64,000 bases of DNA. It comes from Protonemura montana (taxonomy: Eukaryota > Arthropoda > Insecta > Plecoptera > Nemouridae). Location of the stretch: NCBI GenBank assembly GCA_947568835.1, contig OX387604.1, positions 20,923,076 through 20,987,075 on the forward strand. Direction: 5' to 3'. A program made the translations under genes and the position numbers. This document shows, in pieces, positions 7,462 to 60,045 of this stretch. The notes under the pieces are model-generated. The model was not told the origin of the DNA and made no database searches. It saw nothing but the letters and a program-made list of their open reading frames with translations. Within the stretch, counting starts at the first letter, position 1. The number at the start of each line of letters is the position of its first letter.

Positions 7462-10400
7462 TCATCCTACGTATCTGCGAAGGGCACGTCTTCGGATGTT
7501 TTCCATAGTTTGAGTGATGACCCAGACAGAGAACTTGGGTGTAATACACTCCATGAATTTGATGACAGTAACCTGGGGAAGTAAAACAAGGTAAAATGTA
7601 TTCAGTGATTGGATATGTTAAAAATGGTTCTACTAGCTGGAATCGGGGACGCACCATCATGGTGTGTGGAATATAGCCGGTGGTAACTCTCTGGATGCCG
7701 ATGCTGTCGATTGCCCCCCTTACATATGTCTCGGGCGATGGGGCCATCCACGACGACTGCTTGATCTTGCTCATTTTGGTTGCCACGTAGCCAGGCATTA
7801 GGCACTGCACTATCACACCTCGCTTCTCGTATTCGTTCGCTATGTCCATCGAAAATTTGCGAATGTACGCCTAGAAAATTCGAAATATACAAATTCCATG
7901 ATATAACAATTTTAATTTTTTGTGATGTTCAATATAAAAATTACCAAGTTAATTAGCATGCAGTCAGTATTTATTTAGTCATGTTTTGTTTAGTTTCTTT
8001 TGAAGGATCGATTCAAAGTCTGGCTGTTTTGTAGATGAGATGGTTATTGCTCCAAAAGATATTTCGAGGACCTAAAGGGACTCTAGACGATTTCTAATCT
8101 CTCTAAAATCTAATGGCAATGAAAATGGAGACTAAAGGGAATATTGCTAGACCCCATTACTTAAGTTACAGCAATAAAACCCAAGCAAGCTTTCAAATTA
8201 CCTTCGTTGCTCCGTAAACCGACAGCAGGGGGCTAGGAATGATCGCAGTTGTGGATGAAATGTTTACGACGACACCCCTTCCGCGTTCGACCATTTGCGG
8301 CAGTAACATCTTCGTCATGTTCGTGACAGATATAATATTGCATTTGATTATATTTGCATAAATCTTGTCTTTTTCAGGTAGCTCAAGAAAATACTCCGGA
8401 TGTGGGTTACTGGCTCCGATATTGTTTATGAGTACACCAACCTCCAACCCAAACATTTGTTTTTCGATCTCATGATAGGCTTCTGTCGAATCATCGTTGA
8501 AGTCAGCCTGCACCACTTTAGTACGCACGCGGTATTCTGCTTCTGTAGACACATATTTTCAACAAATAAGAAACATAAAAGCATCTACATACGTGTAATT
8601 TTCCCAAGCTAGAACTGAATGATAAAAATGATACTAATAAAAAAACTCGTATAAATTCACTCGTTTATGAAAGTAAATAATGGGTGCAAAAATATTGCAA
8701 GCCAAGATCCATCGAAGTTCAAACGGGTTCATATTATGTAGTCTTGATAAAATACTCTATCCAGTAACAAGATCACCAGTCATTTTGCAATATGCTCTAT
8801 CTAAGTAGGACATTCTTGCTATGAATTGTGGAAGATAATAAAAAGTTGATTGAATGTGGCATGTTTGCTGAAAGGAATTTGAGGAAAACGTTCATACCAA
8901 TCTCAGCGGCGACTGATTGGAGTTTTTCCAGCGATCGACTCACTAAAACGATGTCAAGCCCCTTTTTAGCCAGCTGCAGAATTAAAGATAACATACACTT
9001 AATCAACGCTATTTTCGAACAGTCTACATAACTGAAAATGAAAACATAAGGGCACATTTCCTTACCGCTTGAGCATATGCTTTCCCCAGACCATCAGTAG
9101 CACCAGTTATAACTGCAATAAAATAACATTTTATTTTCTATGGAATGTTCATTTAGAACCTGGTCAAAAATATAATCTGGTTTACCTCCCGACCAGGAAA
9201 AATCACAATTTGAAGTAAAAATGGCTATAAATGCATAGTTGGGCTTCTAAAATATCATGAAAAATATGCCCCAAACCACTTCTTACATCTTTTTCTAATC
9301 TTCATTATTACATATTCCGTAGTCAACGCCCCCCTCCTCCCCCCTCCAATCAAAATTGTACACCCGCCTGCTTCAGAGACTCAGAAACAGAAATGTTAGG
9401 CGAGGAAATCCGATTGTGTAGTTGTAGCAACGCCTTTTTTATTTCAACCATAATATTATCATTTCCTGCAAGGTTCAGAGGTCGTATTTACGCTACTGTA
9501 ATCCCTATTAGTACAAAGATCGCATATAAATAAAATGTTCCACGACGTTTTTTTAGCAGACAGTGACTAAAACACGTAGGTCAGTTCTTGGAGATGTATG
9601 GATGCTCTTCACCCGCGTTATGACCCGAGTTCTCGCTAGGCTCATGGCGCTAGGCTGTTCAATCAACGACAACAACGCAAAGCATGCCAATTCTGCACGT
9701 GTGAACGATGTGACAACCGGAAGTAACAAATAGCAAAACACAAAACACATTCAACGTTTCACATGCCAATTTTTTTTTTGACAGACCACGGTAATCGTGT
9801 GTCTGATAATGGATTTAATTCGGGCCAAACAGTGCCCTTTATGAATTATATCCACTTGCAGATTTTTTCCGGCTTGTCTGAAAATGTGGAGTTTTTTCTG
9901 ATTTTTTTGGAAAAAAAAAAACGAGATGTAAAAAGGCAGATCTAGGCAGAAGGCGAGATCTAGGCAAGAAGCCCCATGCATGAAATAACTTGACTGGACC
10001 TCAAATATGGTGCCCCTAATGTCCATACCCCCACTGACTACGTGAATTGTGTTTAAAAAACACGAATTAATTCTTGCGAAACGAACAATTCTATCAATTG
10101 CAATTTCAAATCAATCAAATCTGATCTGAGAAATAAAGCGAACGAACAAAAAATATTGTCGCAAATGGAGTGTTTTAATACGAATCAGATGCGATGCAGG
10201 GACAAAGTTAAATTGATGTACGAGGGTTGGAATTAGATCTTTTTGGCAAATTTGATTGCATAATATGTCATTTTTCCAATTCAAAAATTTTCCATCAAGC
10301 CTTCCTCCGCCAGAAGCTTCCAAGATGAGGTGAGTATTATAAGGAGAATAATTGCAGTTACCTGAAGATGTACCGAGCTGGGGACAAATCTTTAACAAAT

Positions 10401-16600: not shown

Positions 16601-19600
16601 CCTCGTGCAGAACTACGTCAGCGTGAGAATCATTTCCTCTAGATATATTGCCAGCTGAAATAAGACGCGATGCAATTGAAAAGAAACAAATAACCTTTAT
16701 ACTGCATAGATAATAAAGGTTAAATTAGGTCCTTTTCAGGACCACAAGTCAGTTACAACAGAGCAAGTCCGTCACTCACCACGACATTCACCCACGGCTT
16801 TGAACCACTTCACCAAACCAAATAAAAATAAGTTGTTTGGAGACGTTAATATTATATTTGATTGAGTTTTGATCTTAAAGAAACACATAAATACCCAGTT
16901 TTTTAAATGAAATCTGAAAGTCAACAACATTTGGAGAAAAGGAATTCTCAAAAAAAAAAAAAAAATCAAATTGAGATCAACGTAGTTTAACGTGGTATTT
17001 AGAAGTGTAAGAAAGTTTCGGAAAGTTTCGGCCCTTTTCTTGAAGTTATGGCAAAAGATAGGAAAACCAATTTTGTACACAATATAGTCAACACCTTTCA
17101 CTAGGTAGTGTAGTCAAAAGCAAGTCATTCTGAGCTAAGGGCTGTTTCCTGGAATCATTTCCGTCGTCCTCTGCATTTTTTGTGGTGGCCTAGGATCGAG
17201 ATAGAAAAGAATTTAATACCACTAAAAAAGTGGAATGTTGTGATTGATTTGTGATCCTAATTTTTAATTGCCTGGTGATAGTGTTTTATGTCAATTAATT
17301 GGCATTTTTATTTATCCCACATATCCAATACCAATGCCTGCACGTAACTCGAACCTAGTTGAAAAATCTCTGTCTTCAAGTCGAGATTTGTTGTATAAAT
17401 GAATGTATATGACTGTGGTGACAGCGAAATAAGCTCGGCCGGCTGAGCGGTTTGTTGACAACCTTGGCGAACTTTGATCGTCTCTGTACGGTTTATTTTC
17501 CATCCCTCAGTTTAAAACGAACACAGAGGTTTTTTGTGTAACGAGACCAATCGATTGCCTTCATAAAAAATATCGGAATTCCTAAAACTACACATTTTAT
17601 TCTTGGTTGGGGATAAGATCTTTGGGAAACCCTCTAATCTAGCTGGACGTGCATACCCTGCTGAAAATTCTTAGCAAGATCTTGCAAGATCTTGCAAGAT
17701 CTTGGCAAGATCTTGGTAAGATGCAAGATCTTGCCAATTTCTTGGCAATTTCTTGAAAACATCTAAGATTTTTCCCTTCAGACAAGATTTGTTCAAGATC
17801 TTGGTAAGAAATTGACAAGATCTTGACACGGTCCCGTGGGATCTTACATGGCTGCAAGATTTTTGGAATCTTGGCAAGGAAACGATATCTTGGCAAGTTC
17901 TTAGCAAGTTCTTGAAATAATTTTTTTGTGTTGCGATTCTTGAAAGATCTTGCACGCAGAATTCTGCGTTTCCGACTTTAAAGTCTTCTAAAATAATAAT
18001 TGATAACTGCAAGATCTTGCTCGGTGCGAAAACGCACTCGTGAATGGAGAGCACACAAATGAGATTAATTTTTGTCTTGTTGAATGCTCTGGTTCTGGAT
18101 CTGATCCCTCTGATTCTGAGTTTCTGGACAACTGGACCATGATCCAGTTGTAACTTTTTCTGCGGAAAGGTTTACAACGTCATTATACTTAGGGGTCGTT
18201 GTGACAACAATACTTCGTAAAACTGTGAAATTTAACGACGCATTGTTTCTATAACCTCTCTCCGGTACAGAACTGTGTGTGATGGTCACTCATATAATAC
18301 CCAGCGCGTGTTGCTTGACTTCGGTGTTCTCACGAGGACCGGTGTTTCCAACATGCCAAATCGTTCGGTGATAAGCTGAATGTCGGTTTAATGTGAATAT
18401 ATGATGCGATTCTCCATTCGGGCTCTATAGTATTGCAATATATATATTTTTCATTCTAAATGATAAATACTCATGCTAAGTTTTGTTTAGTAGGTATGTG
18501 GCAATTGTTGGACTGGGACCGAATTTTGGCCTTTCAACTGATATTTAATATTTCTACTAATAAATTTACATTTTATTATTTTCTCACAGAGTCGTACATT
18601 TTGTACCACAAGATGCACATTATTGTAAATGTTTAATTATATTTATTTCAATCCGAGGTTTGTACGGAATTATTTGAAACTCCACAGGAATTTTGCATTG
18701 CATTCAGCAATGCACGACCTTTTCAATCCTAAGTTACAATAAACACCATCATCATCCACTGATTTACCGACGTCTTTAGGCCGCTGACAACGATGGCTGT
18801 TAGCAAAATAGTGCGTCGTTGAACACGTTGATCAATCAACTGTGTTATTATGCAACTATAGCAAATTTCACGGAAGGTATTGTTCTCAAAAATGCCTCGT
18901 GTGCTTTTCTCTACGTGGATGAGAGCTTTATCAAACATTGGTGCTGGGCCCTATGTGATTTCCGAAGAATTAAACTCCCAAATTCGAAGAATTGGCTTGA
19001 TGTACAAGCGTACTTTCTTCTGTGTTTTCGACCAACGAAGACTTTCGAATTCACAAGTAAGTACGAAACAAACTTATAGTCAATACGGTACATACATTTA
19101 CTTTGTAGAATTTGCACTCAAGATTTTCTTTTGGCGAACCTATACAATATTGGTTATTTTGTGTATACGTTTCGCTGTTATGCAAGTTGTTATTTTGGTA
19201 AGAACAAATACCCTCGATTATCTCTGAAAACGCTCTTATAATCACAGTGAATTTACTGTGTTTTTTCATTCCCAGTGAATCTCAGGTATAAACAAAACAA
19301 ATGACTGGATTCCAATTTAACGCTCGGCTATAATAATTGTCATTTTATAATCATAACATGGTCATTGGTGATAGGTGATAGGTGACATGTGTGTGAAACA
19401 TTCGGCTGACAAAGAGTGGCGCGATGGACCAATACCTTGTTATAGTTCTTTCATTTATCTCAACAGCAATTCTTTACTTTTCTGTCAAGAGAAAAAATGT
19501 GCTAATGCTGAAATGTAGTGCGTCTACTCAAGTTGAACTCATACTCGAGTTGCTGTTGCAGATAAGAAAACTAGACTCCAACGACTCATTCTTTATTAGC

Positions 19601-22600
19601 CGGGCTATATATGCATTTTAGCAGACTTGCAAAATGATACTCGTAGCGAGCAGCGTTCCTCAGTATGAACTAGATTTCGACTGGTGGGGATGTGTCGCGT
19701 CGCGTCGCGTTGCTTTGTTTAGTCTCTAATTGCACATTTATTTGTCTTTTTCGGCAATGTGATTGTTAGAAATAGGAAGTCATTTTTACCGTCTGCATTG
19801 TGGCATTTTTTGTCGTCGGGGTTTGAAGTTAATAGGGGAGACCTTTCAATTGATTTGTTTCGTGTAATTTGAAGGTACCTACGCATCACTGTTACATTCA
19901 AACGCATCACTTCTTGAATATCGGTTGTCTAGAAGCAAATTGGAAACATCACCTTATCAACATGCTTCCTACTTTTTCAGTCTTGGAGCTCAAAACGTTG
20001 CTGCGTTCATGAGTACTGAATTGGAAGACAGATGCTCCACTTTATTCCCTGACAAGCTGCCCTTGTCCACAGTAGAAGCAGCTATATCGCTTGAAGATAG
20101 CGTTGCGATGTCAACGGACAATTTCACAACTCTTGGTAAGTTGCTAGGATGCAACTACAATAATCAATTAATTTTCAGAAACCTATGGTGGCATTTATTG
20201 ATCAGGAGGTGCTAGTACAAATGATGCTTGTTTCCATGTGTTTAAAACCGCACATTTTTTATTGCAGTGCTGTGAATCTCTCCTGGCTGGTGGCAACAAT
20301 CTCTGAGATTCCATGCCCATGGTGTGATGTTCCAACTTATTTCTGCCCTCCATTCCAAGCTCCATTGGAAGAAAAATGATTTTGGTAAGTTAATTTGAAT
20401 TTTCCTCCAAAATCTATGTTCGTACTATCTATTTAAATAGCATTTGTTAACATATGCGATTTCTTAGACGCAAATTTTTTTAAAGTCTTTTAATGCAGTC
20501 TCATTGATTGATATTCCTCACGTAATATACAAGTACTCCAAAAAAACTACTTGGTGGGCCCCTTTAACTGCTTTACCAACATTTTGTAACCTTTGCTAGT
20601 TGCTTTCTCAAGGTAAAGTGTTTGATGGATTTGACAGCATAAACAAAATATCAAGAAGAAATTATATATTTGCCAAGGATTCCTAGAATCAAAATAGTTC
20701 TATAATTAATCCAACTAAATGAGGCTTTTTGAAGAAAAAATCCCAAAACCACAAAAAATGGCATATCTAAATCCATTTACTTACCACCTCTGTTATTATT
20801 CTGTGATAGTACAACAAAAACAAATTTGTTTACTCTGTAAAATCAGTGATTCATTGAAAAAAAAGTATATCACAGATTTAAAAAATTTAGAAAACAGATG
20901 CTCTTATTTATTTGTTTTGGCTGTTATTTTTCTGGCGACAAAGCTTTTACACATTTACTTTTTTTTTTACAGATACAGTAAGACATCCTAATTGACAGAG
21001 GGTGCACTGCACTTCCTGGCCGGCTGTTCCTCTCTTCTCTTCATGTTCATTAAGTACCTTGTTTGAATTTTGTGCTGATTTAGGTTATTATTTTTGCATA
21101 CTTATTATATTTCTCAATCAGAGTTTCTTACAGGGTTCTTTTTTACCATTTTTATCTTAATATTGTTTAAAATATTTATTGTTGTATGAGGCATTCATGA
21201 TTTTTATTTGCCAGGTTTTAAAGTATATTATTTTTATTTTTGGGAACACCTATATAGGTATACTGAATTGCATTCATAAAATTCTTATACTATATTTTTC
21301 AATTAATAGAGCTTTGATTCTATTTGACAATTTTTTTCTTAATTTTATATTATGTTTACATCCTACAAAAGATAGGGCATTGATAGTTTGTATTTGCTGA
21401 TTTTCAATTCTTATTTGATTTTTGTTTGTTTTGTTTTGAAGCTGTTTTGAAGTTGTTGGAAAGAAGAAAGTATATCTAAACTGCAATTTCTGTTATTTGT
21501 TATACAGTGCATACAGTTTTGCAATTTTAAAATAAATTTGGTAGCATCTCTAATATGCATTCATTTTTTTGTAAACCTACTTTGCCTTTCCGTGCCATTT
21601 TACAGTGAATCTTAGGAAATCGTGCAAGATCTTCAAACAAGATCTTATCAGATCGTAGTAAGATTTCATGAGATCGTGGCAAGATCTTATAAGAACTTGG
21701 TAAGATCCTAAACAATCGTGGCAAGTTCTTGGCAAGATCTTACAAGATCTTATAAGAACTTGGCAAGATCTTAAACAATTGTGGCAAGTTCTTGGCAAGA
21801 TCTTGACTCAAGATCTTGCAAGATCTTATAAGATCTTGCAAGTTTTTCTTGACAAGATCTTGGTAAGATCTTACAAGATCTTACGTAAGATTTTTCAGCA
21901 GGGTACTTCAAACCAAAGCAATCCGCAACCTGTACATTTGTGTTACACTGGTAGACAGAGGGAAATCAGTAAATTACAGGAGGGTCTTATGTCCCCTTAT
22001 ACATTGCATCCCCTTATACATTGCATCTTGTATTGCATACAATTAATTCCAATTCCATTTCTATTCCAAATTCAAGAGGTACTCATTTTATATTTCTTAT
22101 TTCTTTACCGATGAGTCTAAAAAATATTGAAGCAAAATTATCTTTTATAGAGAAATAATTCCTGCTATGAAGCTGAATTAGAAATAGATTCCAGGTAAAT
22201 GTGGAATAATTTGAAAACGTCTCACGTTTCGACGTTTCGACGAGGCACGGCTCGTCATCTTCAGGAGAATGATGTTGTTTATGTTTTGTTATGAACATTC
22301 CAGGGCCCCCTCTCAGTCCGCCCTGGCGATAGTTTTGCAATACATCGCCTCTGCTTGATAGGTAGCTCTTAGCTAATAGCTTATTCGCCTCTTATTATTT
22401 CTATGACCGCAAACCTCTTCAACACAGAGTAAAATCGAAAAACGTATCAAAATATCAAACCATGGCTCTGAAAACAACCACAACAACCACCAATTTGAAA
22501 ACGGTTTAACTGAATAAAGGGGAGGGGGGAGGTCTTCTAAGACTCTGGACGTCGGGGGATATGTGCTAAGATCTCACGGTAATGAAAACTAAGCACAAAG

Positions 22601-25600
22601 AAAGTGTTTTGTGGGTCTGAGGCCTGAAATTGGTTCTGATAAACAAATGTTTTTCACATTTATTAACGCATCCCTCTCAAAAATGTCCTCTCAGTCAGGA
22701 GTCAGGACTCACTCGCAATGTATCTATTTTACAAGGCTGACGGGCTGTGGATGCTCACAGTTCCTCTGATTCCAGTTTCCTGCCAATTGCGATAGTTTTG
22801 TATTGGCTTACTTCATCCATACAACTTGCAATGCTCCTGTGCTGCATTTCACGTAAGAGTCACCCAACCAAGAAGGTCTCCCAAAATTGTTGCTTAACCT
22901 TGAATACCTAGCGAGCTTCATAGCGACCAGTCAATAGAAATCTTACACCCTTCTTGATAAAAGTTTTTTTGTTTACTCAGATAGGGGTCAAAAATATTTC
23001 TTAGAGTAATTCTTTCGGAGTCGTTTTTTATCTAAGCACCTAAGCCGAAAAAATGTGCACTTTAATCATTTTTGCCCAGGGTTATAGCGATATAGGAATT
23101 TTCTAATATCGGGCTTTGCTAAAATTTTGAACTAAAAGTTGGACCTCTAACTCTCAGAAACATCCGAATTTCCCTGCATGTAATTGGAAGTCGTCATGGC
23201 AATAGTTTCAACTAACACTTCAACTGGGAGGCGAGATTTTGGTAAAATCGGGTCTAAGTGGTCTTTATTTACAACTATGACTAAATAGATGGTTGTTAAA
23301 ACTAATTTTTAAAAGGTAACGGCCCCAAAACCGTTCTTACATGTCTAAACACTGGAACATGATTGAACTTGATCCTACAATAACCAAAGTGTCAATTAAT
23401 TTTGCGTGTACGGTCACACCCTTACCTTTCAGAGCCCAAAAGATCACGACGACGACGACGGCGACAACGACGACGACGCTAACAGAGAGGACGACGATAG
23501 CGGTAACCACCAAGGACGTGACTACCTCGACCGGATTGGCCGTATGGTTGGTGGGGTCTGTGAAAACTTAGATGAAAAAATTCCTGAAAACCAATATTAT
23601 AACAATAGAATAATAAACATATCTATCATGTGGGTTGAGTAGCCCACGTTGAAGTTCTAGAATTTTTCTTATATATGATATGAATATGATATGATATGAC
23701 ATGATATAATATAAACTCTAAGGCGTGTGCTCGACCTCATATTATCAATGGAAAACGGTAAAACAGAATTCCAATCTGACCAAAAAATTCAATACTGTTC
23801 GAAGAATGTCTATAAATTTGCGGCGAATTGTGCATTTGTTAGTCAGGTTTAATATCCGTAAATATCAAATGTACATTCCTGCAACTTATTTTTAATCTTA
23901 TTTCTATATCAGTATTTCTTACTTACCGTAGCGATATGTTACTTACTGAATAGTTAGTTATTAATATTTATAAAAATACAATAATCCCTGCGATGTTTTT
24001 TCTTTTTTTTTAATAGAAAAAGTCTAGCAATATAGCTAGAAGATATAGCTAGATTATTAACTTTTTAGAGGAGCTCTATATAGAGCTCCTCAAGTTAACA
24101 AATTACCTTTCATTTCCTTAGTTTCAGTGTAAATTACGCATCCCTCTTCCGAGAGAAGGCTTATCTGCAATGAAAACCAATCGATTGATTTGATATTTGA
24201 ATCCTGAAGAAATATGAACTGACATATTGACATATTGAACGCACCCTCAAGCAATGGAAACCGACCGGAATCGACAATGTCCAAGAGTCAGTCATCTGTG
24301 AATCAAGTGGTTAGGTGAATAATTCAAGCATTCAATCTTTTTGTACTGGTACTAGGTTAACAAACGCACAAGAAAATATAATAAAGCACCTTAAAACATA
24401 CTAAATAAAACATTAATTGGTCAATGTCTGCTTCTTTATTACGTTAAGTTGTTAACCAGATTATATTTTGTATTGGAATTTGCAAACTATCTTGTGGAGA
24501 AGATATGACGGCAGATAGGGGCAATCTAAGGGGCAATCTGAGGGGCCATCTGATAATATCAATATCTTTGGACTAAAAAAAACTGTTGTGCAGACAGCGA
24601 ACGATGAATGCACCTTAATTTAATTTCCTTACCCCCATTACGTGTGAGGTGTTGTTTATCAGACAGCTCGCTACGTTGATACGACAGCTGAAGAGACAGT
24701 TCCCACTCCAAAGATCAGCCACCACTTTTATCAACGCAAGTTCCTCCATGTATCCCATCATGAATTTCATGTTTTGCCTAAAAATTCAAGTGAATTTCTT
24801 CTAACATACTTCAATTTGTGCATTTTATGTTAGAAGTGGGATGAAAAGTAACAGAAGGTCACGTTTTCACGCCAAACGCTTTCCCCGAGCAAGCGTTGAA
24901 AAATGTTCAAAGAGCAATTGATTTCTTACGTGTTCTGCCGTATTTCAAATGTGTGTTTTGCCTCTTTGAATTGTTCACAATCTGGAAACCGAAAACAAAA
25001 CAGAGCTATAAATGTTTAAGTGGCACAAGGAAACGTAGGAGCTCCAAAGTTAAACTCTGGCCCTTGCAATGAATGAAGACCAGGTGTGCTTACAACAGTA
25101 ACTGGCGTTGAAAATGGTTGGTTCCCATTCAGCCAAGTTTTTCTCTAAGCCGCTCAGGGTAATATACGTGTTTTCTTCTCTTCTTTCAACTAGCCTACCG
25201 GCCAGAGCTTGCATATTCCAACATTTTCGAGTATTGTGGGTCTTGTGTTTCAGCATTAAAATTATTTTGTCTGCAACGAAATAAAAAGCGTAAGCATTCT
25301 TTTGGAGCCAACAAGCTGCTCATTGTTTTATATTTCAATGGTCAATTATTCCAGTTTGCGATGTTTTTTGGAAAATAAATTTGAAATGCGTTCAATATGC
25401 CAATGAGCCCCTGTAGTTTTCCCCCGTGGTTTCCCCCGTGGTTCCCCCCGTGGTTCCCCCCGTGGTTCCCCCCGTGGTTCCCCCCGTGGTTTCCCCCGTG
25501 GTTCCCCCCGTGGTTTCCCCCGTGGTTTCCCCGTGGTTTCCCCCGTGGTTCCCCCCGTGGTTCCCCCCGTGGTTTCCCCCGTGGTTCCCCCCGTGGTTCC

Positions 25601-28600
25601 CCCCCGTGGTTCCCCCCGTGGTTTCCCCCCGTGGTTCCCCCGTGGTTTCCCCGTGGTTCCCCCCGTGGTTCCCCCCGTGGTTCCCCCCGTGGTTTCCCCC
25701 GTGGTTCTCCCCGTGGTTCTCCCCGTGGTTCCCCCCGTGGTTCCCCCCGTGGTTTCCCCCGTGGTTTCCCCCCGTGGTTCCCCCCGTGGTTCCCCCCGTG
25801 GTTCCCCCCGTGGTTCCCCCCGTGGTTCCCCCCGTGGTTTCCCCCGTGGTTTCCCCGTGGTTTCCCCCGTGGTTCCCCCCGTGGTTCCCCCCGTGGTTTC
25901 CCCCGTGGTTCCCCCCGTGGTTTCCCCCCGTGGTTCCCCCCGTGGTTCCCCCCGTGGTTCCCCCCGTGGTTTCCCCCGTGGTTCCCCCCGTGGTTTCCCC
26001 CGTGGTTTCCCCGTGGTTTCCCCCGTGGTTCCCCCCGTGGTTCCCCCCGTGGTTTCCCCCGTGGTTCCCCCCGTGGTTTCCCCCCGTGGTTCCCCCCGTG
26101 GTTCCCCCCCGTGGTTCCCCCCGTGGTTCCCCCCGTGGTTTCCCCCCGTGGTTCCCCCGTGGTTTCCCCGTGGTTCCCCCCGTGGTTCCCCCCGTGGTTC
26201 CCCCCGTGGTTTCCCCCGTGGTTCTCCCCGTGGTTCTCCCCGTGGTTCCCCCCGTGGTTCCCCCCGTGGTTTCCCCCGTGGTTTCCCCCCGTGGTTCCCC
26301 CCGTGGTTCCCCCCGTGGTTCCCCCCGTGGTTCCCCCCGTGGTTCCCCCCGTGGTTTCCCCCGTGGTTTCCCCGTGGTTTCCCCCGTGGTTCCCTCCGTG
26401 GTTCCCCCCGTGGTTTCCCCCGTGGTTCCCCCCGTGGTTTCCCCCCGTGGTTCCCCCCGTGGTTCCCCCCCGTGGTTCCCCCCGTGGTTTCCCCCCGTGG
26501 TTCCCCCGTGGTTTCCCCGTGGTTCCCCCCGTGGTTCCCCCCGTGGTTCCCCCCGTGGTTTCCCCCGTGGTTCTCCCCGTGGTTCTCCCCGTGGTTCCCC
26601 CCGTGGTTCCCCCCGTGGTTTCCCCCGTGGTTTCCCCCCGTGGTTCCCCCCGTGGTTCCCCCCGTGGTTCCCCCCGTGGTTCCCCCCGTGGTTCCCCCCG
26701 TGGTTTCCCCCGTGGTTCCACCCGTGCTTTCAGCAGCTCGGCGTTCTTAAATGTTTGTTTCTCGGAGTGAACTCGCATGTGTGTCGCAGTGTGCAAGCAA
26801 GCATTATAAGGCTTCAAAAAAGAGAAGTGATATTCTCAAATAACGGGAAACATTTTGTTGATGGAGTTTTAATATTTAATAAGAAAATAGTACGGTGCTA
26901 AAAGCTATAAAAGCTATAATTATACATGTTAAAAACCCAACGAGAATGTGTAGTAAAGGAAAGAACGAAAGAAAGAAAAAAATCAAAATGAACGACATTT
27001 TAGTTTAAAAATGTTTTGAAAAAACCGATAATTTTTGCACGTTCCATTCCAAGGTCAGAAAAATGGATGAAACTAGTTAGTATTACAAAAGGAATTTTAT
27101 TTGTAAGTTAAATCATTGGTTGATAAAAATAATTTCAACCGAAAGCTCGCATTTTCGTGGATGAAGGAACCCTCAAAGGAAAGAAAGATAGCAATAGCTC
27201 AACGAAGACGCGTGTGACCTAGAGCAACGCCTTGAGATGTAGCCCACACACCCGTCCACCCACCCACCCACCCACCATCACGCTACAACACTCATCCACT
27301 CACTCATCGGGCTCCTCTGCAACGCACGATTCTACCCAAGCATCATTTTCCGATTGCCTTGCCTTGCCTTGCCTTGCCTTGCCTTGCCTTGCCTTGCCTT
27401 GCCTTGCCTTGCCTTGCCTTGCCTTGCCTTGCCTTGCTTTGCCTTCCTTGCCTTGCCTTATTTCGAGGTCACGTCTTGTAGCCCCTCTGAGTCCTTTTAC
27501 TTTCTGTATCCTTTTCTCTCACACTTGGTTTTTTTTAATTTTTGAGAACTGATACATCATATTACTTTTGATTTTGTTTTCGTAAGTCACCGTATATTTG
27601 ACTGATGAATTAATTTTTAACAGAAATTCTTAATGCTCAATTATACCTGCCTAATTCGAAAATCAATAGCTGACATCTCTGCTAGCTTTTCCTGAAATAT
27701 ATGAAGGAAATCTGCCGAGAATCGGCGGAACCGCTTTGTGAAAGTCAACTTCAAAGCATTGCCTCCCTTTCTACCCTCCGAAATGCTAATTATAATTATA
27801 CACGAACGAAGAAGAATTTTCATACCGAACGGTTTGGCTTGTTGGAAACACCGGTTCTCGTGAGATCACCGAAGTTAAGCAACACTGCGGTATTGGATGG
27901 GTGACCATCATGCACATGACCGGTTCTGTTAGGGAGAGAAGTTGGAGGGATGAAAGTTAGTACAGCAACTACATTCACCTTGCTTATCAACCTCTCGACA
28001 GCATGGAATTGTGGAGGAATTGTGTTGTTCGGCCTGTACCGTCCTTCGGAAGGGACGTTAAGCCGGTGGTCCTCTTGGTGTTCTTCGACAGGAGTAGGCT
28101 ACGTACCGGCACCGGATTTCCCCTCCTACCTTCTAGGCTAGGTTAGGTTCATCGTCATCCTCATAAACTAATCATTCACTGACGCCATTAGACCAGTGCC
28201 GCATTTCCAGATGTCAAAACAGTGCGTCGTTAAAAACCACAAATCAATCAAGAATGTTCATCACATGCCTGAGTGAGTTTTGCTTAGATATAAAAAATAT
28301 TACATTCAGTCACTATATTAAGGTAGATCGGTTGACGGTGAATTAAACTTTTCAAGTCGTCACTTGCACTGTCCTCTACAACAAACTCCCTAGTAATATA
28401 AAAAACTCCCCAACCACGTCCTCATCAAACCACACCCTAAAATCCTACCTTGTAGATAACCCATTCTACACCTAACGTGAATACCTCGAATCCTAACCCA
28501 CTCCTCTCCTCTCCCTCCCCTCCCCTTTCACAAACCATGATGTAAATAATGTAAAAAATGTGATCTTTGTAAATACTGTATATATATTTATAGATATATA

Positions 28601-31600
28601 GCTGACGATGCCTACACAATTATAATGTAAATGTCTATAGGAAAATAAAAAACAAACAAACTGAATCCTGTGGCACCATACGCTTTCAGTTTTAATTTGT
28701 AACGTAAAACTTACTATCCAGTTGCTGAGAAGAAAATTTTAGAGACATTTCCCAAGAGCTCTCATTGAAATAAGCACCTCCAGTGGCCGTACTGGGGATC
28801 GCATTTTCTTCCTGAAACTCCGCCAGAGGTTGATGGTTCTCCAAATTTTCACAACACTCTAAGCGAGAAAATCAAACGGTAATTAGAGGCCAGAAACTTT
28901 TAATATCTTCCGAATTTTACAAAAAATGTTAAATTCAGAAAATCAATTAAAAAGAGACTACTGAAAAACGGCTATGAGCCTGCGATGAATTTGTCAATGC
29001 ACGTGGGTGTACGCAGTCAATCCTGTGTTTATTAACCTTCCTCCCCCCCTCCCCAACGTTCCAAAACTCAGAGGAACAACAGGGAACATGTTTATAAAAT
29101 TAAAATACTACTCTATGCACATTGATTCTGGGGACCGAAATAAGGCTATATTCCCACAAGCGATGATATAATATCAATAAAAAACTGATATAAAAGAGTA
29201 TACTTTGGTATAAGTTTACTTCAAATTTAAAATCTGTACACGATTTCGCTAAAAACGGATAAAATTTTAAGTTTGAGGTTTGTTTAATTTGACAGTGAGT
29301 TTATTGTTGATTGTGAGTGAAAACTACGTGATTACTTTCCCAGACAAAATGGGTGGATAGTGGGTGAATAGTGGGTGCATTGTGGGTGCATAGTGGGTGG
29401 ATAGTGGGTGCTGAGTGGGTGGATAGTGGGTGGATAGTGGGTGGATAGTGGGTGGATAGTGGGTGGATAGTGGGTGGATAGTGGGTGGATAGTGGTTGGA
29501 TAGTGGGTGGATAGTGGGTGCATAGTGGGTGCATAGTGGGTGCATAGTGGGTGCATAGTGGGTGGATAGTGGGTGGATAGTGGGTGGATAGTGGGTAGAT
29601 AGTGGGTGGATAGTGGGTGGATAGTGGGTGCATAGTGGGTGCATAGTGGGTGGATAGTGGGTGGATAGTGGGTGGATAGTGGGTGGATAGTGGGTGGATA
29701 GTGGGTGCATAGTGGGTGGATAGTGGGTGGATAGTGGGTGGATAGTGGGTGGATAGTGGGTGGATAGTGGGTGCATAGTGGGTGCATAGTGGGTGGATAG
29801 TGGGTGGATAGTGGGTGGATAGTGGGTGGATAGTGGGTGGATAGTGGGTGGATAGTGGGTAGATAGTGGGTGCATAGTGGGTGGATAGTGGGTGGATAGT
29901 GGGTGGATAGTGGGTGGATAGTGGGTGGATAGTGAATGCATAGTGGGTGCATAGTGGGTGGATAGTGGGTGAATAGTGGGTGAATAGTGGGTGCATAGTG
30001 GGTGGATAGTGGGTGGATAGTGGGTAGATAGTGGGTGGATAGTGGGTGGATAGTGGGTGCATAGTGGGTGGATAGTGGGTGGATGGGGGTGCATAGTGGG
30101 TGCATAGTGGGTGCGTAGTGGGTGGATAGTGGGTGCATAGTGGGTGGATAGTGGGTGGATAAGTGGGTGGATAAGTGGGCGCATATTGGGTTAATTCTGT
30201 CAGTTGCAAGCCCGTTAGACCTGGGAAGCAGTAATACACACGACGGAGTGAGAGAATGAAGATGCAGTCCGTCGTGTGAACTGGCTCAAATATATTTGAT
30301 TTGCCGAGTGAAATTCAGTACACACTGAAAGTTGTTAAATGGCATCCGCTGAAGATAAGAGGTTGTGTATTTGAGAGGAAGTTACAGCGAGGTATCAGCT
30401 TCTCACGAAAAAATACTTAAATACAGAGACCAGTCAATTAATTTTTGTCAAGATTAAAATAGAAGTTTCTTATTTCTTATTCTTTATTTAGGGGATATTT
30501 GTTCATTAAAAGTATTTTTTGTTTTTCCATATATTTGTTCATCTTTGACTGATCAAAATTTTCTCGGCTTTTAAAAGTTGTTTTTATTTTTCCGTCCTCT
30601 TAATGTTGTGGAAAGTGCACCGTAGCACTAAAAATGTCTAAAGTTCGGACAGCTACTGCGTATCAACGGTGCGATTTTAAATGTTAAATAATCGGTTTTA
30701 TTCTGTCCTAGGCTTACTTCATTCATGTACTCACAGTTTTTATGAATGAAATTTGGTCCGGTAACTTTTTATTTTCTTTGTGTTGATTTGATATGGAATG
30801 ACCCAAAGACAATCAGGTCGTATACAAAGCCCTAACACGTTCAAAGCTAAAGTCCAACCGCAAAACAAAACTAAAAATGTACCAAAGAAACTTGTTTCAA
30901 TTACAAATGTTGAGAGAACATTTCAATTAGACATTATAATCAATAATCAGCACAGCTTCACTGACTTCATTGACTTCATTTCACTTCATTTCACTTCTTT
31001 TCACATCTTTTTGCTTATACATACTTGTACATACTTGTACATACTTGTACAGACTTGTACAGACGTGTACAGACTTGTACTTCACTAAGATAATAAATAC
31101 AATGTGTTCACCTGCAGCCTCCTGGAATTTGTAACACGACTCCATCCTAGAGTCAAACTGAAAGAGACAAAGTTGTTAAATTTTTCTATTTGAATATCGT
31201 TGAATCTTTGACGATATTAGTAGACAAAGTTGACCTAACCAGTTTATTTTACGAGTTTAGTAGAGCTCATCTGAACCTATCATATTTGTTCACCAAGCTG
31301 TATTTAAAACGTTTTGATTGATACACTTTTTACACTCATGTATTTATTTATTTATCGAAATCAAACTTTGTGATATTTGAGCTGTGTAGCCTCCGTTATC
31401 ATCACTTAAATCAATATTTAAGTTTCGTTGCAGCAATGAAAGCGATGGATACTGGGAAATGAAATAGATGATTATACTTTTTTCTACGCATCTTTTTATC
31501 TTGTATTTGCCTATCTAAACATTAATGAAAGGTATAAACCTCCACCCTCTGCCCTTTTCCTTCCGTCTCTTCGCCACACAAATAACTCTCCACAGCCACC

Positions 31601-43634: not shown

Positions 43635-46600
43635 ATACGGGGATCCCAATCAAATGGCTATAGGGTAGTAAATTTTTATATCACAACACAATATATAGAA
43701 TGACATTAATATCGCTATCAAATAAAATTCAAATGCTTTAACAATATCTGAGTTACTATTTACGTGTTGTGTTTACGTAAATCAGCCGACTGCGAGAGTG
43801 ATTCATTTGATGTTGACAAGCGTTTGTGTCGTGAGGTCAGTGGTCATGGCCGATTATAATCTGTAATTTGTGAAGATTATAATTAATCTCCCAGCATTTG
43901 TTTAACTTTGACGCGCGAAAACCATGAAAAACGAACATCGGGGCAGGCCCCACGGGTGCAAACAGGAACATTACGCAGGCGGGCAATAAAGTCCTATGGC
44001 TTGTAAATGTAGTCACATGAATCTCCATGCATTTAAGGAAACCCTACTCTCCCTTATAACTATATCTGTTAAGATTTTACGTTGTTTTTATTAACCACGA
44101 TATAACATGTTCTAGGCATAAGGCAAGCTAAGAAAAAAACGCAACATGAGAGAAGACAAAAAATTGGACATGAAAACTAGAACAACAAATCAACCTAATT
44201 CTGGCGACCCTCAACGATGGGCAAAGCGATAAAGAAACAACCATTCTAAACCTAACCAACCTACCGAACCAATCAAAACCTAACCAACCTACCCAACCAA
44301 TCTAAACTGGAGAACGAAACAACCTCTAGAAAGAACCTTTAACGACCAAAACTTGGACAGGAAGCCTAACAAAAATGGAACTGTCCCCAAATTTTTCTTG
44401 ACTTCTCTCATGTCACACAAATTAATTAAGAATTATTAATATTTTCAGACGCAAACAGCCTCTGAACTGACGTGACGTTAAGCCCCGCAAAGCAAGCAAT
44501 GAAAGATGTTACCTAACAAACTAAAGTTCTCCATGTTTCCTCAGACACCTGCTAAAACTCTCACAGCGCGTCCTCGCTACAATTTCCAGGGCTTGAAGCA
44601 AGGTCTCCGAGTCTTGTGCCGAGTTTTCGTCGGAGTTCTCGTCGATTCGAACGAGAGGAAGCCAAGACACATCGGCTTCAAGCAGCAGCTCGTGGAGTAC
44701 ACCTGAAAACAGAATAAAGTCTCATTAGACTCGTTGCCAGGTAGATGACGGCCCTTGCACACATTAACACATGCTCTAAATAGCTACGCCTACTCAGGAA
44801 AAAGTGCAAAACCAGTTCTTGAACGAAGGAAAACATTAGCTTTGTTTGCTGGCCATGAACCTGTGATTGGGTTTAGTTCTATTAACGGTTTTCTAGTGTT
44901 TACGTTGGGTCGAAAGTCTATGCAAAATGCAAACACACTGTTGTGGAGATTGACAAGTAGTTTTTGCTAACATTGGACTGCTTCATTAACAGTGGAAAAT
45001 GTGTGGAAAAGTGCAGAACTGGCAAACAGAACTATTTTCTCATGAACTTGAGAACCTTGAATAAATAACTTGGATAAATCTTACGCAGATGTTCCGTTGT
45101 TTAGGGGGGGGGGGGGGAGGATTAACATAATATATTTGTGCCAGCAGTGTTCTGTCAATGGAGTGCGTTTACCAATGCAGTTAGTGTATCAGTCATATAT
45201 CAGATATATGTGAAGGCTCGTACCGACTTACATCTATCGACGCTGCGGTAGCGACGTCTCGATGATGCAGGTATGAGATCGGATTCTGTCCTACCGCGAC
45301 CAGGAATAGGATCACGGACAGCGTTCTATCCAAACCAAGGCTGAGTGGAAACCTGCACGAAAAGAAAGGCTGCAGATTAGTCAATACATTCAATTAGTTC
45401 CCGCTAGACGGTCGCTAGCAACAACATTTTTGAGGTGAAGTCCATGTATGTGCCATGCAAGTTAGAGACTGGGGGTCGATTCCAAAAATGGGAACAAATT
45501 CTCGGAAGGGTAGTTGTGCACGCTATCAGTTGATTCCCACTTATCAGCATTTTGAATTAAAATGTCAGCCTTCAGTGAAAGTTTTGGTTTGGAGCAGGGA
45601 GCTTGACATCCATGCAGTACTAAAGTAAGGTGGTAAGAAGCGTCTCTGTAGTTTTGTTGTCTGGTATATTCCATCGTAAGTCTCTTGTCTTGAGGGAAGT
45701 CGTATTGCTCTGGTTCCTCGAGGTCTTCACAATCACTTTTCTTGATCGTGACCAAAAACTGCAGACTGTGGACAAAACAAAAAACACGTTAGTCACGATT
45801 GCCAGCAGTTTTCAACGCCACTGGGGCGGGCAGATGCAAAATTAAAATGAGCAAACAACAGTGGACAGACTCGTTTAGCTCAAGAAAAGTTGGAAGTAAC
45901 AATTCCTGCAGCAGATTTGTTGTGGAAAATACTCATAGATTCGTGGCTTACCATTGGTTAGTCGAGCAGCGTGTCAATCTTTATTCTTCACCAGTGTCTT
46001 GAGCGCCGAAGTGTTATGGGCACCTATCCTGTAGCCTCGCGGTCTGCTGGGAATCAAAGGACAAAAATAAACAAACGTTAGGCGGACAAATCTCACTGGG
46101 TAGAGACGCACAGAGTTTCAAAATGATCCCGAAGCAATCAGAACGGTTTATGTTAATCGATTAACGAGCGTTTCATCGGTCTCGACTTAACTTGTTAAAT
46201 AATTTGAAATATTTATCTGTTGGCTCATCTTTGTTGCCGGGGCGACTGGCAAGGTTGGTACTGGGAGACGAACCAGGACCCTCTTGTCAACTCCGTTCCA
46301 TCTGTGTTGCCGAGGTAATGATCCAGCTGGTAGCCATGGGGCCGACGCATCAATCTGCCAGTCGAGTTGGTAGCAGTGTTCACGTTGCAACTTGAATCCT
46401 ACCGCTGTCAGACTCCAAACTTTACATTTGCAACAATGAAATAAAAAAAAAATGTTTTTGTTATTGCCTGGCATTTGATTATCCGGCACTGAAAGATAAA
46501 GGCTCCGTCATTAGTTCCTGCGACATGGATTAAAAGAAAACAAGTCAGTGAAAGAGACAAGCAAGTAAAAATTACATCAAAAGCAATTAGTACAGTTAGG

Positions 46601-55801: not shown

Positions 55802-58800
55802 CCCTGCTGAAAAATCTTACGTAAGATCTTGTAAGATCTTACCAAGATCTTGCCAAGAACTTGCCACGATTGTTTAAGATCTTGCCAAGTTCTTATAAGA
55901 TCTTGTAAGATCTTGCCAAGAACTTGCCACGATTGTTTAAGATCTTGCCAAGTTCTTATAAGATCTTGCCAAGAACTTGCCACGATTGTTTAGGATCTTA
56001 CCAAGTTCTTATAAGATCTTGCCACGATCTCATGAAATCTTACTACGATCTGATAAGATCTTGTTTGAATATCTTGCAAGATTTCCTAAGATTCACTGTA
56101 AAATGGCACGGAAAGGCAAAGTAGGTTTACAAAAAAATGAATGCATATTAGAGATGCTACCAAATTTATTTTAAAATTGCAAAACTGTATGCACTGTATA
56201 ACAAATAACAGAAATTGCAGTTTAGATATACTTTCTTCTTTCCAACAACTTCAAAACAGCTTCAAAACAAAACAAACAAAAATCAAATAAGAATTGAAAA
56301 TCGGCAAATACAAACTATCAATGCCCTATCTTTTGTAGGATGTAAACATGAAACAAAATTAAGAAAAAAATTGTCAAATAGAATCAAAGCTCTATTAATT
56401 GAAAAATATAGTATAAGAATTTTATGAATGCAATTCAGTATACCTATATAGGTGTTCCCAAAAATAAAAATAAAATACTTTAAAACTTGGCAAATAAAAG
56501 TCATGAATGCCTCATATAACAATAAATATTTTAAACAATATTAAGATAAAAATGGTAAAAAAGAACCCTGTAAGAAACTCTGATTGAGAAATATAATAAG
56601 TATGCAAAAATAATAACCTAAATCAGCACAAAATTCAAACAAGGTACTTAATGAACATGAAGAGAAGAGAGGAACAGCCGGCCAGGAAGTGCAGTGCACC
56701 CTCTGTCAATTAGGATGTCTTACTGTATCTGTAAAAAAAAAAGTAAATGTGTAAAAGCTTTGTTGCCAGACAAATAACAGCCAAAACAAATAAATAAGAG
56801 CATCTGTTTTCTAAATTTTTTAAATCTGTGATATACTTTTTTTTCAATGAATCACTGATTTTACAGAGTAAACAAATTTGTTTTTGTTGTACTATCACAG
56901 AATAATAACAGAGGTGGTAAGTAAATGGATTTAGATATGCCATTGTTTGTGGTTTTGGGATTTTTTCTTCAAAAAGCCTCATTTAGTTGGATTAATTATA
57001 GAACTATTTTGATTCTAGGAATCCTTGGCAAATATATAATTTCTTCTTGATATTTTGTTTATGCTGTCAAATCCATCAAACACTTTACCTTGAGAAAGCA
57101 ACTAGCAAAGGTTACAAAATGTTGGTAAAGCAGTTAAAGGGGCCCACCAAGTAGTTTTTTTGGAGTACTTGTATATTACGTGAGGAATATCAATCAATGA
57201 GACTGCATTAAAAGACTTTAAAAAAATTTGCGTCTAAGAAATCGCATATGTTAACAAATGCTATTTAAATAGATAGTACGAACATAGATTTTGGAGGAAA
57301 ATTCAAATTAACTTACCAAAATCATTTTTCTTCCAATGGAGCTTGGAATGGAGGGCAGAAATAAGTTGGAACATCACACCATGGGCATGGAATCTCAGAG
57401 ATTGTTGCCACCAGCCAGGAGAGATTCACAGCACTGCAATAAAAAATGTGCGGTTTTAAACACATGGAAACAAGCATCATTTGTACTAGCACCTCCTGAT
57501 CAATAAATGCCACCATAGGTTTCTGAAAATTAATTGATTATTGTAGTTGCATCCTAGCAACTTACCAAGAGTTGTGAAATTGTCCGTTGACATCGCAACG
57601 CTATCTTCAAGCGATATAGCTGCTTCTACTGTGGACAAGGGCAGCTTGTCAGGGAATAAAGTGGAGCATCTGTCTTCCAATTCAGTACTCATGAACGCAG
57701 CAACGTTTTGAGCTCCAAGACTGAAAAAGTAGGAAGCATGTTGATAAGGTGATGTTTCCAATTTGCTTCTAGACAACCGATATTCAAGAAGTGATGCGTT
57801 TGAATGTAACAGTGATGCGTAGGTACCTTCAAATTACACGAAACAAATCAATTGAAAGGTCTCCCCTATTAACTTCAAACCCCGACGACAAAAAATGCCA
57901 CAATGCAGACGGTAAAAATGACTTCCTATTTCTAACAATCACATTGCCGAAAAAGACAAATAAATGTGCAATTAGAGACTAAACAAAGCAACGCGACGCG
58001 ACGCGACACATCCCCACCAGTCGAAATCTAGTTCATACTGAGGAACGCTGCTCGCTACGAGTATCATTTTGCAAGTCTGCTAAAATGCATATATAGCCCG
58101 GATAATAAAGAATGAGTCGTTGGAGTCTAGTTTTCTTATCTGCAACAGCAACTCGAGTATGAGTTCAACTTGAGTAGACGCACTACATTTCAGCATCAGC
58201 ACATTTTTTCTCTTGACAGAAAAGTAAAGAATTGCTGTTGAGATAAATGAAAGAACTATAACAAGGTATTAGTCCATCGCGCCACTCTTTGTCAGCCGAA
58301 TGTTTCACACACATGTCACCTATCACCAATGACCATATTATGATTATAAAATGACAATTATTATAGCAGAGCGTTAAATTGGAATCCAGTCATTTGTTTT
58401 GTTTATACCTGAGATTCACTGTGAATGAAAAAACACAGTAAATTCACTGTGATTATAAGAGCGTGTTCAGAGATAATCGAGGGTATTTGTTCTTACCAAA
58501 ATAACAACTTGCATAACAGCGAAACGTATACACAAAATAACCAATATTGTATAGGTTCGCCAAAAGAAAATCTTGAGTGCAAATTCTACTAAGTAAATGT
58601 AGGTACCGTATTGACTATAAGTTTGTTTCGTACTTACTTGTGAATTCGAAAGTCTTCGTTGGTCGAAAACACAGAAGAAAGTACGCTTGTACATCAAGCC
58701 AATTCTTCGAATTTGGGAGTTTAATTCTTCGGAAATCACATAGGGCCCAGCACCAATGTTTGATAAAGCTCTCATCCACGTAGAGAAAAGCACACGAGGC

Positions 58801-60045
58801 ATTTTTTAGAACAATACCTTCCGTGATATTTGCTATAGTTGCATAATAACACAGTTGATTGATCAACGTGTTCAACGACGCACTATTTTGCTAACAGCCA
58901 TCGTTGTCAGCGGCCTAAAGACGTCGGTAAATCAGTGGATGATGATTGTGTTTATTGTAACTTAGGATTGAGAAGGTCGTGCATTGCTGAATGCAATGCA
59001 AAATTCCTGTGGAGTTTCAAATAATTCCGTACAATCCTCGGATTGAAATAAATATAATTAAACATTTACAATAATGTGCATCTTGTGGTACAAAATGTAC
59101 GACTCTGTGAGAAAATAATAAAATGTAAATTTATTAGTAGAAATATTAAATATCAGTTGAAAGGCCAAAATTCGGTCCCAGTCCAACAATTGCCACATAC
59201 CTACTAAACAAAACTTAGCATGAGTATTTATCATTTAGAATGAAAAATATATATATTGCAATACTATAGAGCCCGAATGGAGAATCGCATCATATATTCA
59301 CATTAAACCGACATTCAGCTTATCACCGAACGATTTGGCGTGTTGGAAACACCGGTCCTCGTGAGAACACCGAAGTCAAGCAATACGCGCTTTTACACAC
59401 ACAGTTCACACACAGTTCACACACAGTTCTGTACCGGAGAGAGGTTATAGAAACAATGCGTCATTAAATTTCACAGTTTTACGAAGTATTGTTGTCACAA
59501 CGACCCCTAAGTATAATGACGTTGTAAACCTTTCCGCAGAAAAAGTTACAACTGGATCATGGTCCAGTTGTCCAGAAACTCAGAATCAGAGGGATCAGAT
59601 CCAGAACCAGAGCATTCAACAAGACAAACATTAATCTCATTTGTGTGCTCTCCAGTCTCCATTCACGAGTGCGTTTTCGCACCGAGCAAGATTATCATCA
59701 ATTATTATTTTAGAAGACTTTAAAGTCGGAAACGCAGAATTCTGCGTGCAAGATCTTTCAAGAATCGCAACACAAAAAAATTATTTCAAGAACTTGCTAA
59801 GAACTTGCCAAGATATCGTTTCCTTGCCAAGATTCCAAAAATCTTGCAGCCATGTAAGATCCCACGGGACCGTGTCAAGATCTTGTCAATTTCTTACCAA
59901 GATCTTGAAAAAATCTTGTCTGAAGGGAAAAATCTTAAATGTTTTCAAGAAATTGCCAAGAAATTGGCAAGAACTTGCATCTTACCAAGATCTTGCCAAG
60001 ATCTTGCAAGATCTTGCAAGATCTTGCTAAGAATTTTCAGCAGGG
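55802..60045 (-). mobile_element. CCCTGCTG DNA element, copy 2 (4244 bp)
   Basis: Same element as 17656-21903 in opposite orientation, differing by scattered substitutions and small indels. AA flanks both sides (55800-55801, 60046-60047). The corresponding uninterrupted sequence in segment A (reverse complement around 44400, GAGAGAAGTCAAG) has a single AA, which proves insertion with a 2-bp duplication. Palindrome arrays are at 55812-56090 and 59750-60030, and the exon-like ORFs match those of copy 1. Confidence 0.88.

What the first reader, a model, noticed from the sequence alone, without database searches (positions are those of the whole stretch)
17656..21903. A 4.25-kb DNA element with CCCTGCTGAAAA ends and palindromic subterminal arrays
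Seen directly: inverted CCCTGCTGAAAA termini, arrays of CAAGATCTTG/TAAGATCTTA at both ends, and two near-identical copies 34 kb apart in inverted orientation. No familiar transposase is visible. The combination of a 2-bp duplication (TA here, AA in the second copy), C-rich ends and a BglII-like palindrome array does not match a superfamily I can name, so this may be an undescribed family or the non-autonomous partner of one.
Basis: partly seen in the sequence, partly recalled or inferred. Interest (0 to 1): 0.78.

Follow-up and report, generated by a model that had tools for sequence, protein, structure and literature searches.

The report
Non-autonomous CACTA transposon with palindrome arrays
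This is a recently active DNA transposon without its own transposase, of the known animal CACTA (EnSpm) type, present in dozens of nearly identical copies in its host genome: a newly described family here, but of an ordinary kind.

Summary
The element spans 17656-21903, with a second, inverted copy at 55802-60045. Both have perfect CCCTGCTGAAAA ends and dense CAAGATCTTG-type arrays. The host is an unnamed 258-Mb genome, probably animal. Of 29 copies with both ends, 27 are flanked by a 2-bp duplication of varied sequence (10% in unpaired flanks), and empty sites confirm this for two insertions. Interiors differ from their consensus by 0.4-2.2%, so the family moved recently. No transposase was found in it.

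The same genome holds TNP2 (Transposase_21) genes. At 5 of 5 near-identical 785-aa loci the gene is flanked by related CCCTAGCAAAAA ends with subterminal short-repeat arrays; three of these are complete 14.9-kb intervals. Three 3.8-4.0-kb intervals share the same ends. The window family is best read as a parallel non-autonomous family.

Its own intact partner was not found. The best candidate is decayed: an 88%-similar 5' end lies 5.3 kb from a TNP2 remnant on the same strand, and that link is unproven. Novelty: new member of a known kind.

The parts
17656..21903 (+). 4,248-bp non-autonomous DNA transposon, CACTA/EnSpm (TRC) type, copy 1
   Evidence: both 12-bp ends exact, TA duplication, other copies in the genome with the same ends
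17654..17655 (.). target-site duplication TA, left
21904..21905 (.). target-site duplication TA, right
17656..17667 (+). left terminal inverted repeat CCCTGCTGAAAA
21892..21903 (-). right terminal inverted repeat
17668..18019 (.). left subterminal array: 9 AAGATCTT sites, 8 within exact CAAGATCTTG
   Evidence: inferred binding region of an accessory DNA-binding protein
21619..21891 (.). right subterminal array: 13 AAGATCTT sites; its length varies among copies
18253..18321 (-). decayed fragment of a 5S-rRNA-headed SINE-like repeat carried inside the element and seen inside many other family copies
   Evidence: alignment of this stretch to the repeat; Rfam 5S hit on another copy of the repeat at window 27824-27930
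18020..21618 (+). interior without recognised protein domain; short ORFs and splice-like sites whose joined frames hit stops
55802..60045 (-). copy 2, 4,244 bp, inverted; AA duplication on the + strand
44370..44544 (.). related repeat copy without the insertion: empty site for copy 2
   Evidence: 86% identity over 183 columns, one TT at the junction

Best explanation
It is a non-autonomous (transposase-less) cut-and-paste DNA transposon of the animal CACTA/EnSpm superfamily, TRC type. SHOWN: precise CCCTGCTGAAAA ends, a 2-bp duplication at most insertions, subterminal arrays of a 10-bp palindrome in both arms, dozens of copies with low divergence, several unrelated interiors on the same ends, and intact TNP2 reading frames in the same genome inside elements with ends of the same form. 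INFERRED: a TNP2 transposase supplied in trans cuts at the CCC ends and makes a 2-bp staggered insertion, while a protein encoded by the autonomous element binds the CAAGATCTTG arrays, as TNPA does for the maize En/Spm subterminal repeats (PMC2613891, passages). The matching autonomous element is old, decayed, lost or not in the assembly.
For: 2-bp duplication at 27 of 29 copies with both ends, against 84 of 812 unpaired flank pairs. The dinucleotide varies: TT 5, TA 5, AA 4, CA 4, AG 2, TG 2, AT 2, CT, CG and AC 1 each. Empty sites with the dinucleotide once: copy 2, and L042 in a 5S-headed repeat. CCC start plus 2-bp duplication is the reported signature of animal TRC elements. Transposase_21 is present in the genome: 5 matches over the cut-off; the 785-aa frame scores 33.6 bits against a cut-off of 28.6. 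The pattern CCCTAGCAAAAATNTCAA (up to 1 mismatch) has 19 matches (reversed-pattern control 1), and 9 of the 19 flank the 5 TNP2 loci: C5, C8 and C10 as 14.9-kb intervals, C16 as a 16.1-kb interval with one end mismatched, C30 with one end, the contig starting close on the other side. At C5, C8, C10 and C30 the end lies exactly 2,427 bp past the reading frame (arithmetic). Both ends of that element carry repeated 7-mers. Two of 3 short intervals with those ends show a 2-bp duplication. A 5' end 87.9% like the window family's lies 5.3 kb from a TNP2 remnant on the same strand.
Against: No intact TNP2 element with CCCTGCTGAAAA ends was found. Apart from C16:27.31 Mb, no TNP2 place has a 5'-type end (up to 1 mismatch) or exact 3'-type end within 10 kb. 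At C16:27.31 Mb retroelement pieces interrupt the region, the 3.9 kb between end and gene was not read, and no 3' end was seen; the second copy of that gene, C16:28030606, has no listed end near it. The window ends match CCCTAGCAAAAA at only 8 of 12 positions. Perfect palindromes are not enriched in the TNP2 element's ends (8-mers: 3 and 1 against shuffle means 2.0 and 1.8). The 14.9-kb C5 interval and one of the 3 short intervals lack a 2-bp duplication. One window-family copy (L009) has no duplication and one (L024) matches over 3 bp.
Confidence: 0.9

Rival explanations
1. An undescribed superfamily with its own, unrelated transposase, of which only non-autonomous copies survive.
For: No intact transposase gene with these exact ends was found; near-perfect 10-bp palindrome arrays are not seen in the TNP2 element's ends.
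Against: CCC ends and 2-bp duplication match the published animal CACTA marks; TNP2 loci of this genome are flanked by ends of the form CCCTnnnnAAAA; the C16:27.31-Mb association.
Confidence: 0.05
2. It belongs to another lineage near CACTA (Mirage, Chapaev, Plavaka, ESTA).
For: That wider group makes 2-5 bp duplications; PlavakaA makes 2 bp (PMC12730594, passages).
Against: PlavakaA ends are TGT..ACA, PlavakaB ends CATCA..TGATG, and ESTA duplicates TA, whereas here the ends are CCC and the duplication varies. The transposases found here match Transposase_21. Families PF18758 and PF18759 were not searched successfully, so other lineages in this genome are not excluded.
Confidence: 0.04
3. The copies spread by segmental duplication or assembly error rather than transposition.
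For: Three of 3 examined copies of the short 1-kb type share their flanks and are duplications of one insertion; L009 and L010 are neighbours.
Against: The copies of the 4.2-kb type listed have different flanks, own dinucleotide duplications and empty sites.
Confidence: 0.01

Closest known systems
SmTRC1 and insect TRC elements (CACTA superfamily; PMC1636069)
   Same: ends begin CCC (Tribolium CCCTAGTAG..., Aedes CCCAGTCAAC); 2-bp duplication; TNP2/Transposase_21 in the autonomous elements
   Different: this element encodes no transposase; the perfect terminal repeat is 12 bp against 54, 27 and 10 bp; CAAGATCTTG arrays instead of the AAAGGGGAAATAAAG motif
Spongebob_HMa / EnSpm-4N1_HM of Hydra (PMC4298943)
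   Same: classified as CACTA/TRC on the same two marks, CCC ends and a 2-bp duplication; no intact transposase; 5.8 kb
   Different: different terminal sequence (CCCAGCCAACATTGAC); no palindrome array is mentioned in the passages seen
Maize En/Spm and soybean CACTA elements (PMC2613891)
   Same: short terminal repeat plus subterminal motif arrays in both arms; non-autonomous copies moved in trans by TNPD and TNPA
   Different: CACTA ends and a 3-bp duplication in the soybean element; subterminal motifs differ, although a TCTTA stretch is noted for En-1
The 14.9-kb TNP2 elements with CCCTAGCAAAAA ends in the same genome
   Same: CCCTnnnnAAAA ends, subterminal short-repeat arrays, long elements accompanied by about 4-kb intervals with the same ends
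   Different: encode a 785-aa Transposase_21 protein; ends differ at 4 of 12 positions; motif CAATTG/AAATGT instead of AAGATCTT; perfect palindromes not enriched

Membership tests
Animal CACTA/EnSpm (TRC type), as a non-autonomous member | terminal inverted repeats beginning CCC | tested here: met
   CCCTGCTGAAAA at both ends; 56 exact 3'-type 18-mers and 55 5'-type 20-mers with up to 1 mismatch in the genome, reversed-pattern controls 0
Animal CACTA/EnSpm (TRC type), as a non-autonomous member | 2-bp target-site duplication | tested here: met
   27 of 29 copies with both ends; empty sites
Animal CACTA/EnSpm (TRC type), as a non-autonomous member | subterminal short-motif arrays (typical of CACTA elements) | tested here: met
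Animal CACTA/EnSpm (TRC type), as a non-autonomous member | same ends on an element encoding a TNP2 (Transposase_21) protein | tested here: inconclusive
   one decayed candidate, C16:27308502-27314855, linkage not read through; ends of the same form but differing at 4 of 12 positions on intact TNP2 frames
Animal CACTA/EnSpm (TRC type), as a non-autonomous member | Repbase rule for non-autonomous elements: same duplication length and positions 1-11 alike with at most 1 mismatch (PMC4455052) | tested here: inconclusive
   4 mismatches to the TNP2 element; 0 mismatches to the C16:27314855 end, whose transposase link is unproven; Repbase itself not available
Autonomous CACTA element | encodes a TNP2 transposase | tested here: not met
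   no Pfam hit above cut-off in the eight stretches scanned; no tblastn hit of two TNP2 proteins inside the element, E up to 10
Tc1/mariner | TA duplication only | tested here: not met
   TA at 5 of the 27 copies with a 2-bp duplication
PIF/Harbinger (3-bp duplication, recalled) | 3-bp duplication | tested here: not met
   3-bp match at 1 of 29
Plavaka / ESTA | TGT..ACA or CATCA..TGATG ends; TA duplication for ESTA (PMC12730594) | tested here: not met
   CCC..GGG ends and varied dinucleotides

The most novel reading that the evidence does not exclude
The ends work as an exchangeable cassette. The same 12-bp repeat and AAGATCTT arrays cap several unrelated interiors (4.2-kb type, 1-kb type, mixed pieces), and the 3' array expands and contracts quickly in copies whose interiors are about 99% alike (10-27 sites). 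The array of perfect palindromes, read by a symmetric DNA-binding protein distinct from known TNPA proteins, would then be the selected part of the element, and end swapping rather than internal deletion would make new non-autonomous types.
Probability: 0.15. Interest if true: 0.4.

Novelty: new member of a known kind. Interest (0 to 1): 0.2.

Why it matters
It gives a young, well-delimited animal CACTA family in a genome that still holds intact TNP2 reading frames, which is useful material for defining ends, duplications and subterminal motifs of animal CACTA elements; these are far less studied than the plant ones. It changes no general picture.

Tried and rejected
Reading longer copies as autonomous elements was rejected. 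The extra length in L019, L030, L032, L033, L037, L039, L041 and L044 is other DNA placed at a different point of the element in most of them, taken as nested insertions; these inserts were not identified.

A coding interior was considered. Splice-like donors and acceptors exist (19057, 19981, 20136, 20268, 20385, 20973), but joined frames hit stops. Two long ORFs have no match among solved structures at E up to 1 and no Pfam hit above cut-off. Codon-position counts of variable sites are 5, 5, 12 for the 121-aa ORF and 11, 12, 11 for the 115-aa ORF: the first leans towards coding, weakly, so a small gene is not excluded. No similarity of the interior to the TNP2 elements was found by blastn or tblastx.

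The 785-aa TNP2 element was first set aside because its ends were missed; a closer look and one search showed its true ends. One search was meant to list only variant ends but the pattern was mis-specified, mostly re-listed known ends and was cut at 100 rows. Rfam matches in L059 at E 0.004-0.07 are far below the gathering scores and were taken as chance. The literature search for the terminal 12-mer gave 2 papers unrelated by title, only the listing seen. A search for EnSpm, CACTA, 2-bp, CCCTG and subterminal repeats gave one maize Ac/Ds paper. Repbase and Dfam were not available, so a named entry for this family may exist. The host species was not identified.
Full report
WHAT IS THERE. The window holds two copies of one element. 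Copy 1 is 17656-21903 (4,248 bp); copy 2 is 55802-60045 (4,244 bp), inverted, 33.9 kb away. Each begins and ends with CCCTGCTGAAAA. Next to the ends lie arrays built on AAGATCTT: 22 sites in copy 1, 2 in the 55,508 bases outside both copies. In the first 450 bp exact CAAGATCTTG occurs 8 times, shuffle mean 0.005; in the last 320 bp it occurs 14 times with up to 1 mismatch, shuffle mean 0.03.

THE FAMILY. The 5' end gave 119 candidates of which the 40 best were scored, with 80 matches, many of them between array units. The 3' end gave 103 candidates (40 scored). The interior 18800-20400 gave 65 candidates (40 scored) and 40 matches at 94-100% identity; three loci are split into two matches, so these are 37 loci. 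All these counts are lower bounds. The exact terminal 12-mer has 130 matches against 24 for the reversed pattern; the more specific 3'-type 18-mer has 56 and the 5'-type 20-mer (up to 1 mismatch) 55, controls 0.

DUPLICATION. I fetched 40 stretches around copies. With the two window copies, 29 copies show both ends, 4 of them with one mismatch in one end. A 2-bp duplication is present at 27 of 29; unpaired flanks agree in 84 of 812 pairs. L009 has none; L024 matches over 3 bp. The dinucleotides vary. Copies of the target without the insertion were found for copy 2 (window 44370-44544, 86% over 183 columns) and for L042 (L059, L045 and window 27872-27959); in each the dinucleotide stands once, except that the last reads CG for CA. 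A possible third, for copy 1 against L047, is ambiguous at the junction; most of the other junction-spanning alignments are to the decayed SINE-like piece inside family copies, with a gap at the junction, or to a copy's own flanking repeats.

AGE AND VARIATION. Over the interior (positions 450-3850) 25 copies differ from their consensus by 0.42-2.24%; the closest pair differs at 1 position and the two window copies at 43. The 3' arm is 300-491 bp with 10-27 AAGATCTT sites in the 19 of 23 copies where the anchor was found; the 5' arm has 6-9 sites in all 23; two copies that lost the 3' end were left out. Array length thus varies much more than the interior.

CODING. Five ORFs gave no Pfam hit above cut-off, three further stretches none, two ORFs no match among solved structures at E up to 1, and two TNP2 proteins found nothing in the element with tblastn at E up to 10, their only two hits in the window lying outside both copies. 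Splice-like sites exist but joined frames hit stops. Variable sites by codon position are 5, 5, 12 in the 121-aa ORF and 11, 12, 11 in the 115-aa ORF, so a remnant of a gene remains possible. The element also carries a decayed piece of a 5S-headed SINE-like repeat.

WHICH SUPERFAMILY. DeMarco and colleagues (PMC1636069; passages, section 6) report that animal CACTA-related (TRC) elements of Schistosoma, Tribolium and Aedes begin with CCC and make 2-bp duplications (7 of 14 Schistosoma copies). Passages of PMC4298943 show the same two marks used to class the Hydra element Spongebob. The window family has both marks plus the subterminal arrays typical of CACTA elements (PMC2613891, passages).

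TNP2 IN THE SAME GENOME. Transposase_21 (PF02992) gives 5 matches over the cut-off and none in the 14 control genomes. The 785-aa frame at C16:23790422-23792776 scores 33.6 bits (cut-off 28.6). By eye it has the C(2)C, H(3)H and E motifs described for this group in PMC12730594 (passages); the motif reading is mine. A protein search gave 30 matches, several families. Its element ends were first missed. They are CCCTAGCAAAAATTTCAAATGTCGAACAATT on the left of the C16 locus and CCCTAGCAAAAATGTCAATTGTCGAACAATT on the right of the C5 locus. Genome-wide, CCCTAGCAAAAATNTCAA with up to 1 mismatch has 19 matches (control 1). Nine flank the five TNP2 loci: C5, C8 and C10 as pairs 14.9 kb apart, C16 as a pair 16.1 kb apart with one end mismatched, C30 with one end, the contig starting close on the other side. 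Six form three pairs 3.8-4.0 kb apart on C2, C13 and C15; the other four are single 1-mismatch sites. The reading frame is uninterrupted in C5, C16 and C30, carries one stop in C8 and is broken in C10. Of the three short pairs two show a 2-bp duplication (CT, CA), C13 does not, and the 14.9-kb C5 pair does not. Both ends carry repeated 7-mers (CAATTGC 8 times, ACATTTG 6, AAATGTT 7), but perfect 8-bp palindromes are not enriched, unlike in the window element (12 and 20 against shuffle means of 1.5 and 1.4).

THE MISSING PARTNER. No intact TNP2 element with CCCTGCTGAAAA ends was found. One end of the 5' type, C16:27314855 (minus strand), is 87.9% like the window element's first 441 bp and then differs. 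A TNP2 remnant lies 5.3 kb inside it on the same strand (27308502-27309581). As rough arithmetic, 55 such ends and 30 TNP2 places in 258 Mb would give such a pair by chance about once in 50 genomes, more often if transposons cluster. LINE-like sequence precedes the gene and LTR-retroelement-like sequence follows it (my reading), 3.9 kb between was not read, and the 98% copy at C16:28030606 has no listed end near it. So this is a lead, not proof.

MECHANISM. Shown: ends, duplication, arrays, copies, and TNP2 frames in elements with ends of the same form. Inferred: TNP2 in trans cuts and joins; an accessory protein binds the arrays. The same ends cap other interiors: the 1-kb type (10 end pairs, 3 read) and mixed types, which suggests that the ends are what the machinery needs.

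VERDICT. A non-autonomous animal CACTA/EnSpm (TRC) family: new here, ordinary in kind.

Noticed in passing
window 27824-27930 (repeat copy to about 27959): Rfam 5S rRNA hit (48.2 bits, E 5.9e-07) at the head of a SINE-like repeat; other copies of the repeat serve as the empty site of the L042 insertion, and a decayed piece lies inside the transposon at 18253-18321.
   Followed up: partly
L059, L060, L061 and seven more end pairs (C11 three, C12 one, C13, C14, C15): A second element type of 981-1,266 bp with the same ends and arrays but an interior of roughly 148-bp repeats (spacing seen in self-alignment). 3 of 10 end pairs were read; those 3 share flanks, so they are duplications of one insertion, and several of the ten lie near contig ends.
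   Followed up: partly
L014 313-967; L011 292-586: Copies with a partial repeat of their own end: L014 has a second complete 5' end 654 bp inside the first.
   Followed up: no
C16:29605776-29615717 (coordinates only; 3' part in L071): An older relative of about 9.9 kb near the contig end, with about 2 kb of array-like matches at one end and an 88% similar 3' part.
   Followed up: no
C2:27025647, C16:21476267, C11:2183864 (L064, L070, L066): A third, mixed type in which pieces of the 4.2-kb interior (about 82% alike) lie next to a 3'-type end; L066 also carries a piece of the 1-kb type.
   Followed up: no
window 25421-26726, 29350-30191, 53134-54102: Long tandem arrays of 12-, 11- and 45-bp units (about 109, 77 and 22 copies) that give long open frames in several reading frames.
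   Followed up: no
window 1774-2634: RING finger of MSL2 (PF16685, E 4.9e-34), which suggests an animal host; a short-chain dehydrogenase is split over 7436-8558.
   Followed up: partly
genome: Several further TNP2 families besides the 785-aa one, e.g. a 719-aa open frame at four places with the same score (C1:7516166, C1:26001178, C2:8201001, C3:14343423).
   Followed up: no
27 insertion sites with a 2-bp duplication: The target site looks biased and loosely palindromic (G at -3 in 16, C at -1 in 15, T at +6 in 18, A at +7 in 16 of 27); no background control was run.
   Followed up: no
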